Part shown: positions 29,076-35,211 of the stretch, piece by piece
How positions within the stretch are numbered: the first letter of the stretch is position 1
Layout of the letters: every line of letters starts with the position of its first letter
DNA from: Streptomyces umbrinus
GTDB lineage: Bacteria > Actinomycetota > Actinomycetes > Streptomycetales > Streptomycetaceae
DNA length: 64,000 nucleotides
Assembly (NCBI RefSeq): GCF_030817415.1
Contig: NZ_JAUSZI010000002.1
Coordinates: 7,874,001 to 7,938,000 of the forward strand
Reading direction: 5' to 3'
The notes under the pieces: generated by a model
Told to the model about the DNA's origin: nothing
The model's input: only the letters and a program-made list of their open reading frames with translations
Databases searched by the model: none
Position numbers and translations under genes: made by a program

Positions 29076-30926
29076 TCAACGAGAGGCGTACTCCTCAGGC
29101 ATGGGCCGCGTATCGAGATAGAACCACTCGGCCGTGGGCCCGGGCCCCTGCGCCGGCCCCGCACCCGTGGACGCGTACGGCCGCCTGGGCAGCCCGGTCC
29201 CGGCCGACCGATCCTGCTCACCGGCCAAGTCCGCCACAGGCGCAGGCGTGCCAACCGGCTTGGCCGGCCCCGGCATCAGCAGTTCCACCCGCAGACCGAA
29301 CCCCCGCTGCTGGGCGACGAACTCCTCCACCTGGTTGCGGCAGGCGTGGTCGAGGTGGGTCACACCGGTCAGGTCGAGCCGAATGCGCGGCTTGCCCGCC
29401 TCCGCGGCGGCCTCCAGCGCCTCGATCAGCTGTGGCAGCCGCAGGAACGTGGCGTTGCCCGCCATGACGACCTTGGCGGTGTCCTCCTCCAGGTGCTGCT
29501 TGATGACGGTCTGCGACATACGCAGCGCGGCCAGCACGATTCCGGCGGCGAGGCCGAAGAGGACGCCTTCGAGGAGCGCGGTCGCCACGATGACCAGCGT
29601 GGTGAGGGTCATGACCGCGAACTCGCCCCGGTCCTGGCGCCACATCTTCGGGAACTCCTCGGGGGCGAAGAGCTTCCAGCCGCTGTGTACGAGGACGCCC
29701 GCGAGGACGGCGATCGGGATCAGGGCGAGGACCTGGGGCAGCAGCAGCGCGAAGGCCAGCAGCCACAGGCCGTGCAGCGTGCGGGACAGCCGGGTCTTGG
29801 CGCCCGCCTGGACGTTCGCCGAACTGCGGGCCACGACCGCCGTGATGGGGAGCGCGCCGAGGATGCCCGCCACGGTGTTTCCGGCGCCCTGGGCGATGAG
29901 TTCGGGGTTGTAGCGGGTGCGCGGGCCGTTGTGCATACGGTCCACGGCCGCGGCGGTGAAGAGGCTCTCCGCCGAGGCGATCACCGTGAAGGTGAGGATC
30001 GCGGTGATGATCCCGACGTCGGCGAGTCCCGCGAACTCGGCCGGGCCGGGGACGTTCACGGACGCGAGCAGATTGCCCACCTGGAGCGTCTTCACGTCCA
30101 CGCCCGGCAGGGAGGCGACCCCGATACCGATCCCGACGGCCACGAGCGCGGCCGGGATCTTCTTGACCGGGCCCGGCATCTTCTTCCACAGGAAACTGAG
30201 CACGATGGTGACGACGCCGAGTCCTGCGGCGATCAGCGCCTGGGGGTTGGCGAAGGTGTCGGCGATCAGACCGGGGAGGCCGGCCATGTTCTCGATCGGG
30301 GTGCCCGGGGCCTTGGAGTCGGACATCGGGTACAACTGGCTGAACATCAGCGGCAGTCCGATGCCCGCGAGCATGCCCTGGACGACGGCCAGGGAGATCG
30401 CCTGGAAGATCCGGCCGAGACGGACCAGGCCCAGGACGATCTGCAGGATGCCCGAGCCGAGGACGATCACACCGAGCATGGCGACGCCGTACTCGAGGAC
30501 CGTCTCCGCCACGAGGGCCGCCAACCCGGCCGCCGGGCCGCTGACTTGGAGGGTGCTGCCGCGCGCCGCGCCGACCACCAGGCCGCCGATGACACCGGAG
30601 ATGATGCCCAGCTCGGCGGGGACACCGGAGGCGACGGCCACGCCGATGCACAGGGGGAGCGCGACGAGGAAGACGACGAGGGAGGCGGTGATCTCGGTGG
30701 CGAGGTCGACCTTCGGCCCCTTGCCGTTCTTGTCCGACCCGGCAGCCCTGTCCGCCTTGGCCGTCCTGTCCGTCCTGTTCATCGGGGAAGCGGCCGTCGG
30801 CGTGATGTCCGGGGCGTACGTGGGGGCGTGGGCGGGGGCGTTCGGGGCGGGGAAGTCCGGGACGGGCGGGGCGTCCGGGATCCTGGCGTGCGCCGGTACG
30901 CGTCCGCGTGCGTGCATCCCGCTCAT
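29076..30926 (-). CDS. SulP-family anion transporter with STAS domain
   Basis: A 616-residue membrane protein. About 65 hydrophilic, proline-rich residues precede the SulP core (VDLATEITASLVVFLVALPL, STLQVSGPAAGLAALV, TVIASAESLFTAAAVDRMH). The core has about 12-14 helices and is followed by a cytoplasmic STAS domain (about 480-570; IRLDLTGVTHLDHACRNQVE). SulP proteins move sulfate, bicarbonate or other anions. The ATGA overlap with a carbonic anhydrase gene points to bicarbonate (BicA-like) transport. Start at 30926 is fixed by the overlap; a later ATG (MNRTDR) is possible. Confidence 0.9.
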   Translation of the reverse strand: MSGMHARGRVPAHARIPDAPPVPDFPAPNAPAHAPTYAPDITPTAASPMNRTDRTAKADRAAGSDKNGKGPKVDLATEITASLVVFLVALPLCIGVAVASGVPAELGIISGVIGGLVVGAARGSTLQVSGPAAGLAALVAETVLEYGVAMLGVIVLGSGILQIVLGLVRLGRIFQAISLAVVQGMLAGIGLPLMFSQLYPMSDSKAPGTPIENMAGLPGLIADTFANPQALIAAGLGVVTIVLSFLWKKMPGPVKKIPAALVAVGIGIGVASLPGVDVKTLQVGNLLASVNVPGPAEFAGLADVGIITAILTFTVIASAESLFTAAAVDRMHNGPRTRYNPELIAQGAGNTVAGILGALPITAVVARSSANVQAGAKTRLSRTLHGLWLLAFALLLPQVLALIPIAVLAGVLVHSGWKLFAPEEFPKMWRQDRGEFAVMTLTTLVIVATALLEGVLFGLAAGIVLAALRMSQTVIKQHLEEDTAKVVMAGNATFLRLPQLIEALEAAAEAGKPRIRLDLTGVTHLDHACRNQVEEFVAQQRGFGLRVELLMPGPAKPVGTPAPVADLAGEQDRSAGTGLPRRPYASTGAGPAQGPGPTAEWFYLDTRPMPEEYASR

Positions 30927-31528
30927 GCGGCGTGCACCCGGAAGCTGCCGTCCTCGTCCAACTCGTGGACCTGGCCGGTGTCGACCTCGTAGTACCAGCC
31001 GTGCAGCCGCAGCCGACCCGAGTCGAGCCGTGGCTTGGTCACCGGGTAACTCCGCAGCGCCTCAAGCTGGTTGACGACGTTGAGCTGGGCCACCGCCGGC
31101 ATCGACGGGTCCTCGCACGCCCCGTCGAGCAACGGCGCGAGTTCCGGGCGGGCCAGGTCGAGCCAGGCGTCCACCCCGGGCAGCGCGGACAGGTCGTCGC
31201 CGGACTTCAGGGCGCCCATCGCGCCGCAGTGGGAGTGGCCACACACGACGATGTCCTGAACGCCGAGCACCTCCAGTGCGTACTCGATGGTGGCGGCCTC
31301 GCCGGACGCGCCCTGCCGTCCGTGCGGTGGCACGATATTGCCTGCGTTCCGCAGCTCGAATATCTCTCCGGGTCGTGCGCCCGTGATCAGGGCGGGTATT
31401 ACCCGCGAGTCCGAGCAGGTAATGAACAATGCCTCCGGATATTGGCCTTCGGCCAGCTTCCGGTATTCGCCGCTCTCGAAATCGACGCGCCTCTTGAACG
31501 AGCGGGCGCGGTCCAGCAGTGCCTTCAC
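30923..31528 (-). CDS. Beta-class carbonic anhydrase
   Basis: A 201-residue beta-carbonic anhydrase that interconverts CO2 and bicarbonate. Zinc ligands are Cys38 in CSDSR (with Asp40), and His98 and Cys101 in GHSHCGAM. Residue spacing is normal and no ligand is missing. The GTG at 31528 has GGGAGGAACC directly upstream. Its stop overlaps the start of the SulP gene as ATGA, so the enzyme and transporter are made together and probably cooperate in bicarbonate supply or pH control. A divergent two-component system lies 285 bases away. Confidence 0.95.
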   Translation of the reverse strand: MKALLDRARSFKRRVDFESGEYRKLAEGQYPEALFITCSDSRVIPALITGARPGEIFELRNAGNIVPPHGRQGASGEAATIEYALEVLGVQDIVVCGHSHCGAMGALKSGDDLSALPGVDAWLDLARPELAPLLDGACEDPSMPAVAQLNVVNQLEALRSYPVTKPRLDSGRLRLHGWYYEVDTGQVHELDEDGSFRVHAA

Positions 31529-31813
31529 GGTTCCTCCCGGCAGGGGGTTCGACCAGGGCTTTCCCGTCGTGCTCCCACCGTAGAGGGGCGACTGCCAGGC
31601 GAAGGTTAAGGGAACACTAGAGCGCGACCAGGAATGGCCCATATTTCGTCCCGGCCGGGCCGAAACATCGTCAACGAGCCATCCATGGACGGTTTTTGAG
31701 CAGCCGGTCACATTACCTCCGGTATAGGCGACGTGCCCATGACGGCTCTTGTAGCGTGTCCCCTCCACGGCACGGAATTCGTGCTGTCCGGATTCATGGG
31801 GAGAACAGGACCT

Positions 31814-33745
31814 ATGGGCGTACGAGTGCTGCTCATCGAGGACGACGAGACGATCGCCGAGCCGCTCGCCGAGGGTCTGGGCCACTTCGGGCTGACGGTC
31901 GACCACGTCTCGACCGGCGCCGCCGGTCTGAGAGGGCCGTACGGCGATGTCGTCCTGCTCGACCTGGGGCTGCCCGACATGGACGGTATCGACGTGTGCC
32001 GGGGGATCCGGCAGTACTCCGACGTGCCCGTCATCATCCTCAGCGCGCGCGGCGAGGAGGCCGACCGCGTTCTGGGTCTGGAACTCGGCGCGGACGACTA
32101 TCTGGCGAAACCTTTCAGCCTGCGCGAGCTGGTGGCTCGGATACGGGCGGTGACGCGACGCACCCAGCAGGGCCGTGGCCTCCAACCCGGCCTGGCCGAG
32201 GGCGAGTTCATGGCGACACCGCCGGGCGGGACACCTGTGGTGGGCCCGTTCGGCACGGGTCCGCTCGGCGCGAGCCCCCTCGGTACGGGTCCGCTCGGGT
32301 CGGGGACCCTGGGCGCGGGCGTGCGGGTGAGCGGCCTGCTCGGCGACGGGGCGCCCGCCGCCGGAGGGACGCTTGGTTCGGAGGCTCCGGGTGCCGGGTC
32401 TTCGGATGCCCGGTACTCGGGCGCTGGCTCGTCCGACTGGCGGTCCCGCTCCGAGGGGGCGTACGAGTCGGGGTCCTCTACGAGTGCCGGGTCCTCCGGC
32501 GCCTGGTCCCGGGACGCGGAACCTCGGGACGAACCCCTGGCCGCGGGCCCCCGGGACGAACCCCTGGCTGTGGAAACCCGGGCCTCGGAACGCCGGGAGG
32601 ACAAGCCGTTCAGGGGCGAGTCGTTCGGCGGCGAACCGTTCGCGGGTGAGTCGTTCTCGGCGGGGGCGGACCTGCCTGGGCAGGACACCCACGGGCGGGA
32701 TACCGCTCGACGCGACCCCGCAGGGTGGGGCCCCTCCGGGCGAGGCGGCTCTGAGACGGGCAACACCGGGCGAGGCGGGGCCGGTTCGGGCGAACCGGAG
32801 CGGGCCGCCGCGGGGGCGGATGCCGCGTCGGGCGCGCGGTCCTCGTACGACCGGACCGATGGCACCGGGGCGCGGTCTTCGTACGACAGGAGCGACGGTA
32901 CTCGCGCGAGGTCCTCTTACGGCCCGTCCGGAGCAACTCGCGCGCCGGACTCGTACGACTCCGCCAGGGGCACCCGTGCCCCGGACCCGTACGACCTGTC
33001 GTCCGGCGGCTCCCGTTCCCCCGACGCGTACGACCCCCGCGCCCCGCATGATCCCCACGATCCCTACGACCAGTCGTCGCGTTCCTTCGAGGCCGGGTCG
33101 GCCTTCGAGTTCGCGCCGCCGGTTCCGGCCGGGCGGCCTCGGCGGGCGGCGTCTGCCGGACCCGTCGAAGGGGTACTCGATGCCGAGCCGGATCCGGTCG
33201 CCGGGACGCCGCCCGCCCCCGGCCCCCTCGTCGTGGACCGCCGCACCCGGCAGGTCTGGGTCGGGGACTCGCCGGTCTCGCTGACGCCGAAGGAGTTCGA
33301 ACTGCTCGCGCTGCTCACCGAGGACCCCGGAGCGGTCTACTCGCGGCAGCAGATCCTGGACCGGGTGTGGGACCCGCACTACCAGGGCCCGACCAAGACG
33401 CTGGACGTCCATGTGGCCACGCTGCGAAGGAAGTTGGGGAACCCGGCCTGGATCCAGACCCTGCGCGGGGTCGGTTTCAGACTGGCCGTGCAGAACCGGC
33501 CGCCCTCGGCGGGCGGAGCCTCGGGCGGAACCCTGGGCGGGGCGACGGGCGGCTCGTACGGGGAACAGCCCGGCAGACCGACCGGCTCGTACGACGCATC
33601 CGGTTCGACCGGCTCGTACAGTACCTCCGGCTCGTACAGCGGCTCCGGCTCGTACGGATCGTTCGAGTCGTTCGAGTCGAGCGGCGCGTACGACGACCTC
33701 CCGGACGGCGGATCCCACGAAGCCCGGCCGGCGGCCTTCCGGTGA
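31814..33745 (+). CDS. OmpR-type response regulator with giant disordered linker
   Basis: A 643-residue regulator, about 2.7 times the normal OmpR/PhoB length. Residues 1-116 are an intact receiver domain (IEDDE near 8-12, phosphoacceptor Asp50 in LLDLGLPDMDG, Ser77, Lys99 in AKPFS). Residues about 468-562 are an intact winged helix (LTPKEFELLALL, KTLDVHVATLRRKLG, LRGVGFRL). Between them lies a low-complexity segment of about 350 residues. It is rich in G, S, P, R, D and Y and contains repeats such as PLGTGPLGSG, EPRDEPLA, FGGEPFAGESF and RSSYDRxDGT. A tail of about 80 residues contains GSYDASGSTGSYSTSGSYSG. The linker keeps the frame throughout, so it is coding. GTGA overlap with the kinase shows they are a cognate pair. 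The ATG at 31814 starts directly at the receiver fold. Confidence 0.93.
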   Translation: MGVRVLLIEDDETIAEPLAEGLGHFGLTVDHVSTGAAGLRGPYGDVVLLDLGLPDMDGIDVCRGIRQYSDVPVIILSARGEEADRVLGLELGADDYLAKPFSLRELVARIRAVTRRTQQGRGLQPGLAEGEFMATPPGGTPVVGPFGTGPLGASPLGTGPLGSGTLGAGVRVSGLLGDGAPAAGGTLGSEAPGAGSSDARYSGAGSSDWRSRSEGAYESGSSTSAGSSGAWSRDAEPRDEPLAAGPRDEPLAVETRASERREDKPFRGESFGGEPFAGESFSAGADLPGQDTHGRDTARRDPAGWGPSGRGGSETGNTGRGGAGSGEPERAAAGADAASGARSSYDRTDGTGARSSYDRSDGTRARSSYGPSGATRAPDSYDSARGTRAPDPYDLSSGGSRSPDAYDPRAPHDPHDPYDQSSRSFEAGSAFEFAPPVPAGRPRRAASAGPVEGVLDAEPDPVAGTPPAPGPLVVDRRTRQVWVGDSPVSLTPKEFELLALLTEDPGAVYSRQQILDRVWDPHYQGPTKTLDVHVATLRRKLGNPAWIQTLRGVGFRLAVQNRPPSAGGASGGTLGGATGGSYGEQPGRPTGSYDASGSTGSYSTSGSYSGSGSYGSFESFESSGAYDDLPDGGSHEARPAAFR

Positions 33746-35211
33746 CGCGTCGCCTCCTGCTCAGCTATCTGAGTCTCGCCGTGCTGCTCCTGCTCTGCCT
33801 GGAGATCCCGCTGGGGTTCGTGTACTCCCGGGGTGAGCGGGAGCGGGTCACCAACATGGCGAAGGACGAGGCGGAGTCGGTCTCCGCGTACGCCTCACTG
33901 GCCCTTTCCATGGGCGGCCGCGCGGGGGAGGACCTGCCCGGCAGGGTGAGCCGCTGCGCCGAGCGCATCGGCGGGAAGGTGGTGATCGTCGACCGGTCGG
34001 GCGCGCTCGTCACCAGCTCGCACACGCTGTCGGCGACGGAGACCCAGGGCCTCGCCGCCCGTCCCGGGATCGCGGCGGCGCTGCGGGGAACCGCGACGCA
34101 GGACGTCCGCACCTCCACCATCGGAGGCGTCCAGTACCTGTCCGTCGCGGCGCCGATCGCGCACGGCTCGTACAAACAGGGCGCTGTGTGGATCACGCTG
34201 CCCACGCAGATGGTGCATGCGCGGGTGCACCACGTCTGGCTGCTGCTGGCCCTCGGCGGGCTCGCGGCCCTCACCGCCGTCGCGGTCATCGGCTTCGCCA
34301 TCGCCCGCTGGACCGGCCGACCCATCCGCGAACTGGAGCTCGCCACCCACGAGTTGGCCGACGGCGGCCCGTCCACACCGGTGGCGATCACCAAGGGGCC
34401 GCCGGAGGTACGGAGTCTCGCGGCGACCTTCAACCGTACGGCCGCCCGCCTCGAACACCTCCTCGCCTCCCAGCGCGCCTTCGCGGGCGAGGCCTCGCAC
34501 CAGCTCAAGACGCCCCTCGCCGCGCTGCGGCTGCGCCTGGAGAACCTGGAGCCCGACATCGCCCTGAACGCCCGGGGCAGTCTGACCGCCGCGATGACCG
34601 AGACCGACCGGCTCGCCAGGATGGTCGAGGGGCTGCTGGCGATGGCCCGGCTCGACGAGAGCGCGGCGGTGCGCGAACAGGTGGACCTGGACCGGGTCTG
34701 CGCGGAGCGGCACCGGGCCTGGGCGCCGATGTTCGAGCAGCACGGCGTACAGCTCGTGCTGCTCGGCGACTACGGCGGACCGGTCCTCGCCCTGCCCGGC
34801 GCGGTCGAGCAGATCCTGGACAACCTGCTGTCCAACTCCCTGCGGGTGTCGCCCCGTTACTCCACGGTGTCCATCGACCTGCGCAGGCCCGAGACCCACG
34901 AACGCCGCTTCGGCCACCGACCGGCGGGTCCGGCCCGCGTCGAACTCCACGTCACCGACGAGGGCCCCGGCATGACCGAGGAGCAGCGCCGGCGCGCCTT
35001 CGACCGCTTCTGGCGCGCTCCCGACGCGCCCAAGGGCGGTACGGGTCTGGGGCTGGCCCTTGTCCAGCGCCTTGCCCATGCGAGCGGGGGTGACGTCCTG
35101 CTGCGTGCCGGTGCCTCCGGCGGGCTTGACGCGGTGGTTCGGCTGCCGCCGGGCGGCACTCCGGGGGTGCCGCCGAGACCGCTGGAGAGCGCCGCTCAAC
35201 GGGTGTTCTGA
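33742..35211 (+). CDS. Sensor histidine kinase, cognate to the long response regulator
   Basis: A 489-residue membrane kinase. Helix 1 (about 5-25, LLLSYLSLAVLLLLCLEIPL) and helix 2 (about 165-190) enclose an extracellular sensor of about 135 residues. A HAMP-like segment follows (ARWTGRPIRELELATHELA), then the H-box FAGEASHQLKTPLAALRLR with the phospho-histidine, and N, G1 and G2 boxes (LDNLLSNSLRVS, VTDEGPGM, GGTGLGLAL). It should autophosphorylate on histidine and pass phosphate to Asp50 of the regulator, whose stop overlaps the GTG start (GTGA). The signal sensed is not evident. The divergent carbonic anhydrase/SulP operon suggests CO2, bicarbonate or pH. Confidence 0.93.
   Translation: MTRRLLLSYLSLAVLLLLCLEIPLGFVYSRGERERVTNMAKDEAESVSAYASLALSMGGRAGEDLPGRVSRCAERIGGKVVIVDRSGALVTSSHTLSATETQGLAARPGIAAALRGTATQDVRTSTIGGVQYLSVAAPIAHGSYKQGAVWITLPTQMVHARVHHVWLLLALGGLAALTAVAVIGFAIARWTGRPIRELELATHELADGGPSTPVAITKGPPEVRSLAATFNRTAARLEHLLASQRAFAGEASHQLKTPLAALRLRLENLEPDIALNARGSLTAAMTETDRLARMVEGLLAMARLDESAAVREQVDLDRVCAERHRAWAPMFEQHGVQLVLLGDYGGPVLALPGAVEQILDNLLSNSLRVSPRYSTVSIDLRRPETHERRFGHRPAGPARVELHVTDEGPGMTEEQRRRAFDRFWRAPDAPKGGTGLGLALVQRLAHASGGDVLLRAGASGGLDAVVRLPPGGTPGVPPRPLESAAQRVF

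What the first reader, a model, noticed from the sequence alone, without database searches (positions are those of the whole stretch)
31814..33745. Response regulator with a ~350-residue disordered, repetitive linker and a FUS-like GSY tail
Receiver and winged-helix domains are intact, but are separated by about 350 low-complexity residues instead of the usual 5-20. The linker has at least four repeat types, including RSSYDR-DGT blocks spaced by arginines. The C-terminal tail after the DNA-binding domain carries five [G/S]-S-Y motifs in about 40 residues, which is the sticker pattern of phase-separating proteins such as FUS; alternating arginine and tyrosine in the linker is the partner pattern. 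A phosphorylation-controlled condensate at the promoter would be a new mode for a two-component regulator. The frame stays open through about 1 kb and connects both domains, so this is one gene.
Basis: partly seen in the sequence, partly recalled or inferred. Interest (0 to 1): 0.87.

Follow-up and report, generated by a model that had tools for sequence, protein, structure and literature searches.

The report
Response regulator with giant disordered linker
This Streptomyces gene switch looks like an ordinary two-component regulator whose two halves are joined by an unusually long floppy tether that shrinks and grows greatly from species to species, more likely a flexible leash built by repeat duplication than a droplet-forming device.

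Summary
One 643-aa ORF (31814-33745) has an intact receiver, a 358-aa linker predicted disordered, an OmpR-type DNA-binding domain and an 83-aa tail, and overlaps a histidine-kinase gene. It is not an assembly artefact: S. phaeochromogenes has a 402-aa linker in the same place. In 107 in-frame relatives (window included) the linker runs from 19 to 402 aa (median 69); 36 paired OmpR paralogues of the same genome have 15-50. Long linkers need at least three changes on the tree (one clade is rejected). They consist of in-frame tandem repeats under relaxed constraint between near-invariant domains. The FUS-like reading is weak: linker Tyr and Arg are ordinary for aliphatic-poor segments of this genome, aromatics are not significantly more conserved pair by pair, and 3 or more [G/S]SY motifs occur in 3 of 107 tails. 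Best reading: a conventional phosphorylation-switched dimer with a repeat-expanded flexible tether. Unexpected: linkers of 130 aa or more go with a spacing of 136 bp or more between two conserved upstream boxes (20 of 21, against 3 of 70), but only three independent contrasts exist.

The parts
31814..33745 (+). OmpR-family response regulator, 643 aa (ATG to TGA)
   Evidence: 107 in-frame relatives, window included
31814..32173 (+). receiver domain, residues 1-120 (D10, D11, D50 at the phospho-site position, K99)
   Evidence: Pfam PF00072 5-111; block pLDDT 84-97; those four residues at least 90% conserved in the 40-row alignment A1
32174..33247 (+). 358-aa linker, residues 121-478; predicted disordered except its ends
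32600..32659 (+). linker block DKPFRGESFGGEPFAGESFS, kept in similar form among near relatives (15-bp tandem array)
   Evidence: window, L009, L010, L011, P0001-P0004, read by eye; array
32837..33037 (+). SYD-type repeats (RSSYDRTDGT, RSSYDRSDGT and diverged copies)
33248..33493 (+). winged-helix DNA-binding domain, residues 479-560
   Evidence: Pfam PF00486 486-557
33494..33742 (+). 83-aa tail, predicted disordered, with five [G/S]SY motifs, ending RPAAFR
33742..35211 (+). partner histidine kinase, 489 aa, start overlaps the regulator's stop
   Evidence: Pfam HAMP, HisKA, HATPase_c; downstream in 78 of 80 loci found with the regulator alone, the other two ending inside the regulator
30923..31528 (-). 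divergent carbonic anhydrase gene (start codon placed by eye)
   Evidence: Pfam PF00484 on 30923-31540; sequence
31602..31619 (.). conserved box A (AAGGTTAAGGGAACACTA): candidate operator, or -35 element of the divergent gene
31747..31758 (+). conserved box B (TCTTGTAGCGTG), -10-like by eye, candidate promoter of the regulator

Best explanation
A conventional OmpR/PhoB-family response regulator with its own kinase. Phosphorylation of the receiver makes receivers dimerise, which raises the local concentration of two DNA-binding domains for a direct-repeat site. The domains are joined by a disordered tether that has been lengthened and shortened by in-frame duplication and loss of short GC-rich DNA units. 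A flexible tether weakens coupling only gradually (rough ideal-chain estimate with an assumed stiffness: about 10 nm and 0.5 mM local concentration for 358 residues, about 4 nm and 7 mM for 62), so switching survives a 20-fold range of lengths and the exact sequence is only weakly constrained. Shown: domain architecture, disorder prediction, repeat make-up, length range, synteny, relaxed constraint. Inferred: dimer mechanism (from the family), tether role, slippage as the cause. Unknown: signal and targets; the divergent carbonic-anhydrase gene is my guess for a neighbour target.
For: Linker 19-402 aa, median 69, in 107 in-frame relatives. Kinase downstream in 78 of 80 loci found with the regulator alone. 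In 9 pairs (some sharing a member) linker dN/dS is 0.36-1.03, receiver 0-0.22, DBD 0-0.09. Of 319 tandem-array rows 265 fall in linkers, 42 in tails, 12 in receivers, 0 in DBDs; periods are multiples of 3 in 258 of 265 and 41 of 42. Lineages use different repeat units (SYD, GESFGGEPF, YGSGTS, HGTPAYG, YEPPVYEP, by eye). Disorder. Linker and tail lengths correlate (Spearman 0.45, n 75).
Against: If length were only a by-product, other regulators of the same genome should drift too, but 36 paralogues stay at 15-50 aa, while 101 of 107 relatives exceed 30: something about this family favours or tolerates a linker. Linker dN/dS is under 1 in 8 of 9 pairs, although alignment on amino acids biases it down. 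Length is associated with promoter-region spacing. The compact M. tuberculosis PhoP dimer with a strict spacer (PMC4832192, passages) shows that not every family member works through a loose tether.
Confidence: 0.7

Rival explanations
1. One reading: linker Arg/Tyr and tail GSY motifs are stickers, and phosphorylation-controlled multivalency forms a condensate at the promoter.
For: Tail Tyr 7.2%, 97th percentile of 142 segments; five [G/S]SY. In five overlapping pairs of the window's clade Y and F are kept at 0.89 and 0.92 against 0.75 overall. Aromatics average 6.9% in 48 linkers of 130 aa or more (the 48 include some proteins counted both as locus and as database protein).
Against: Linker Y, R and total aromatics are average for the genome's aliphatic-poor segments (61st, 63rd, 51st percentile; segment aromatics median 5.8%, mean 6.4%). 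In the other two clades aromatics are not kept better throughout: scab clade Y 0.80, F 0.62 against 0.70; acidicola clade Y 0.84, F 0.88 against 0.86. No pair is significant (9 of 9). 3 or more tail [G/S]SY in 3 of 107. 87 of 107 linkers are under 130 aa.
Confidence: 0.1
2. Tether length is matched to promoter geometry: the regulator bound at box A must reach its own promoter, which lies about seven helical turns further away in long-linker species.
For: A-B distance is 136 bp or more in 20 of 21 loci with a linker of 130 aa or more and in 3 of 70 with shorter linkers; contrasts on the tree r 0.36, n 87, p 0.0006; distances cluster near whole helical turns (p 0.0004 on 23 distinct values, 0.025 on 12 hand-made clusters).
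Against: Only 3 independent pairs, all concordant, sign test p 0.25; sign agreement of contrasts 33 to 26 and rank test p 0.11. Exceptions L054, L057, L072, L100, and 19 of 110 loci lack the box pair. The helical peak is not sharp on clusters (R 0.47 at 10.5 bp, 0.40 at 9.5, 0.39 at 8.5), and 87, 110 and 128 bp are out of phase. The long spacing may be ancestral rather than gained with the linker. Box A is fixed at 25 bp from a -10-like element of the divergent gene in 91 of 94 and may belong to that promoter. Binding by this regulator is unproven.
Confidence: 0.12
3. The linker is functionally empty: neutral growth by replication slippage, tolerated because any length works. (Overlaps with the best explanation, which adds only that the tether does useful coupling.)
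For: Relaxed dN/dS, different repeat units per lineage, repeats at DNA level.
Against: 36 paralogues do not grow; dN/dS under 1 in 8 of 9 pairs; a linker over 30 aa persists in 101 of 107.
Confidence: 0.25

Closest known systems
OmpR/PhoB-family response regulators (VanR of S. coelicolor, PhoP of M. tuberculosis, PhoB, KdpE, MtrA)
   Same: Receiver plus winged-helix DBD, conserved active site, kinase partner next door.
   Different: Family linkers are given as 5 to 21 residues (PMC8329863, passages seen); here 358, plus an 83-aa tail. No NCBIfam equivalog cut-off is reached in the 25 of 87 families shown (best CreB, 191.8 bits against 273). PhoP of M. tuberculosis binds as a compact tandem dimer (PMC4832192, abstract and passages).
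FtsZ C-terminal linker (works like; not a relative)
   Same: Disordered tether next to a conserved domain, very variable in length and sequence across species (recalled; only a search listing seen).
   Different: Unrelated protein; polymer tethering rather than transcription.
FUS-type low-complexity domain (recalled)
   Same: Short G/S-Y motifs in the tail.
   Different: Tyr density of the linker is 2.5%, average for this genome's aliphatic-poor segments; motif not kept in most relatives.

Membership tests
OmpR/PhoB response regulators | N-terminal receiver domain with acidic residues, phospho-accepting Asp and conserved Lys | tested here: met
   Pfam PF00072 78 bits; D10, D11, D50, K99 at least 90% conserved in alignment A1
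OmpR/PhoB response regulators | C-terminal winged-helix Trans_reg_C domain | tested here: met
   PF00486 85.9 bits
OmpR/PhoB response regulators | adjacent partner histidine kinase (usual) | tested here: met
   78 of 80 loci found with the regulator alone, the other two cut by contig ends
OmpR/PhoB response regulators | short interdomain linker (5-21 aa); usual, not defining | tested here: not met
   358 aa; relatives go down to 19 aa by the same measure
OmpR/PhoB response regulators | phosphorylation-dependent dimer binding a direct repeat | not testable with these tools
   needs bench work
FUS-like phase-separating low-complexity proteins | Tyr-rich low-complexity composition beyond background | tested here: inconclusive
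   linker not enriched (61st percentile), tail enriched (97th)
FUS-like phase-separating low-complexity proteins | conserved sticker pattern | tested here: not met
   Fisher p 0.13-0.86 in 9 pairs; 3 or more tail [G/S]SY in 3 of 107; but Y and F kept at 0.89 and 0.92 against 0.75 in the window's own clade
FUS-like phase-separating low-complexity proteins | concentration-dependent demixing | not testable with these tools
   needs bench work

The most novel reading that the evidence does not exclude
Receiver-to-DBD tether length is an evolving, selected parameter of this regulator that co-varies with operator-to-promoter spacing in whole helical turns, so tether and promoter geometry are tuned together; long-linker members of two separate clades share the 144-157 bp spacing.
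Probability: 0.12. Interest if true: 0.78.

Novelty: new variant of a known kind. Interest (0 to 1): 0.52.

Why it matters
Structural models of OmpR-family activation rest on short linkers. A family in which nature varied the linker from 19 to 402 residues while the domains and kinase stayed nearly constant is a ready-made length series to test whether a plain flexible leash suffices, whether length sets output, and whether promoter geometry must follow.

Tried and rejected
Misassembly or fusion of two genes: rejected (same architecture in S. phaeochromogenes, S. albicerus, S. cavernae and others). Antisense 931-aa ORF (30923-33718): rejected as a high-GC by-product; the carbonic-anhydrase gene at its end is real. 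Codon-position G+C of the linker (0.74/0.72/0.83) agrees with the + frame but is only weak evidence. A longer start at 31733: rejected. Long linker as one inherited insertion: rejected (AU p 0.00017 on a quick tree, 15 long of 67 rows; 8 long-branch rows were dropped first, among them the long-linker L072; the group was named after an earlier tree had been seen). Programmed frameshift or phase variation in the linker: three of 110 loci are out of frame (L013 in the DBD; L038 and L048 in the linker); drafts, nothing beyond sequencing error or decay. A wider regulon of box A: one site in the genome at up to 2 mismatches. Literature: the listings (no hit) showed me no title on a response regulator with such a linker or on this operon; subscription papers are mostly not covered.

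Limits: the 142 background segments come from a crude gene caller on 800 kb and include some folded protein. Tandem-array rows overlap. dN/dS was computed on amino-acid-guided alignments, and linker dS is higher than domain dS in most pairs. One search kept 80 of 195 matching loci. The 40 stretches and most of the 20 were picked by a kinase match, so the kinase next door in all 110 loci is partly by construction. The 107 relatives include second copies within one genome (such as L171, L175, L176) and receivers as low as 78% identical (L189). The paralogue control uses only the 36 regulators with both domains listed, which scored 150 of 233 candidates.

Full report
WHAT IS THERE. The ORF at 31814-33745 (+) encodes 643 aa: receiver (Pfam 5-111), 358-aa linker, Trans_reg_C domain (486-557), 83-aa tail. 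The next gene (33742-35211) is a HAMP/HisKA/HATPase_c kinase that overlaps the stop. Upstream and divergent lies a carbonic anhydrase gene (about 30923-31528; Pfam on 30923-31540); downstream, on the other strand, are an SDR, an MFS transporter, a TetR regulator and a nitrite-reductase-like gene. The window is in a 12.4-Mb, 3-contig genome; the nearest named relative for this operon is S. phaeochromogenes (98% over 680 columns). No NCBIfam equivalog cut-off is reached among the 25 of 87 families shown.

DISORDER. AlphaFold with a 40-row alignment gives block means of 84-97 for the receiver, 87-95 for the DBD except one block of 65, and mostly under 50 for residues 124-458 and 562-643. No secondary structure is predicted in the linker apart from the end of the receiver helix and a strand at 472-475.

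RELATIVES. One genome-contig scan found 195 relatives, of which 80 were kept: 75 had both domains in one frame, two ended before the DBD, three were out of frame; a kinase match lay downstream in 78 of 80. Linkers of the 107: 19 to 402 aa, median 69; 20 are 130 or longer, 5 are 300 or longer, 6 are 30 or shorter. By the same measure 36 other OmpR-type regulators of the window's genome have 15-50 aa. The published family range is 5 to 21 (PMC8329863, passages). The family is in part of the genus: 33 of 150 genomes (window's included) with a receiver match at E <= 1e-44 (those at 65-79% identity may be paralogues), 55 of 392 with a kinase N-terminus match at E <= 1e-40.

HOW IT VARIES. The junction PLVVDRRT is exact in 95 of 107. 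Between it and the receiver each lineage has its own repeats: SYD and GESFGGEPF types in the window's clade, YGSGTS in S. cavernae, HGTPAYG and YEPPVYEP in the scab-species clade (by eye). Tandem-array rows number 265 in linkers, 42 in tails, 12 in receivers and none in DBDs, nearly all with periods divisible by 3. In 9 pairs linker dN/dS is 0.36-1.03 against 0-0.22 (receiver) and 0-0.09 (DBD). Holding the long-linker rows as one clade is rejected (p 0.00017; at least three changes of state; 67 rows after 8 were dropped). Kinase length is steadier (median 495, 404-676, n 75), with a weak correlation with linker length (rho 0.29, p 0.013).

STICKERS. Against 142 aliphatic-poor segments (a filter that ignores Tyr and Phe) from 800 kb of the same genome, the linker stands at the 61st percentile for Tyr, 51st for total aromatics, 63rd for Arg; the tail stands at the 97th for Tyr. 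In the window's clade Tyr and Phe are kept at 0.89 and 0.92 against 0.75 overall, in the scab clade at 0.80 and 0.62 against 0.70, in the acidicola clade at 0.84 and 0.88 against 0.86; pair by pair the difference is never significant (9 pairs). At least one [G/S]SY occurs in 7 of 107 tails, three or more in 3. So the motif is real in this species and its nearest kin, partly from an 18-bp tandem array, and not a family feature.

MECHANISM. Held for the family, not shown here: phosphorylation promotes receiver dimerisation and brings two DBDs to a direct repeat (stated as the standing hypothesis in PMC4832192, passages). A flexible tether keeps the local concentration near the millimolar range even at 358 residues by an ideal-chain estimate with an assumed stiffness. 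That accounts for tolerance of length; it does not explain why this family keeps a linker when 36 paralogues do not. In a review of bacterial signalling condensates (PMC11326607, passages for five terms) response regulators appear as possible recruits of condensates, posed as an open question.

PROMOTER REGION. Two boxes are conserved in the 285-bp intergenic stretch: A (AAGGTTAAG, 31602) and B (TCTTGTAGCGTG, 31747). A lies 25 bp from an ACCGTAG element of the divergent gene in 91 of 94 loci, so it may be an operator or a -35 element of that gene. The A-B distance (91 of 110 loci) is 71-72 in 47 loci and 144-146 in 18, with others near 52, 63, 91, 105, 115, 136 and 155, but also 87, 110 and 128, which are out of phase. 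The helical-period test gives p 0.0004 on 23 distinct values and 0.025 on 12 hand-made clusters, where other periods come close (R 0.47 at 10.5 bp, 0.40 at 9.5, 0.39 at 8.5). A linker of 130 aa or more goes with a distance of 136 bp or more in 20 of 21, against 3 of 70 (this set includes the out-of-frame loci with both boxes). Phylogeny weakens this: contrasts r 0.36, p 0.0006, but rank test p 0.11, signs 33 to 26, and 3 independent pairs, all concordant, p 0.25. The long spacing may be ancestral.

VERDICT. A real and striking member of a known family, with a variant architecture: a hypervariable tether predicted to be disordered. The condensate idea is open but has little support beyond the tail.

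Noticed in passing
window 31602-31758: Conserved boxes A and B between the carbonic-anhydrase gene and the regulator; their spacing varies in steps close to whole helical turns and is long where the linker is long.
   Followed up: partly
window 31697-31714: TGAG-(4 to 9)-TCACA element between A and B; the pattern occurs upstream in 20 of 21 long-linker loci and 18 of 70 others. It resembles a CRP-type site (recalled, not tested).
   Followed up: no
window 33725-33742: Tail ends A[YF]R (RPAAFR here) in 16 of 107 relatives, long- and short-linker ones among them; a possible C-terminal motif.
   Followed up: no
L013, L038, L048: Regulator out of frame in three draft genomes (in the DBD in L013, in the linker in L038 and L048); sequencing error or decay.
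   Followed up: partly
L085: A record titled Actinoplanes sandaracinus carries the regulator-kinase pair with an 87-aa linker, on a long branch among Streptomyces rows: transfer, contamination or a distant relative.
   Followed up: no
P0061, P0043: More distant regulators (receiver 51% and 59% identical) with linkers of 160 and 106 aa, so long linkers are not wholly confined to this family.
   Followed up: no
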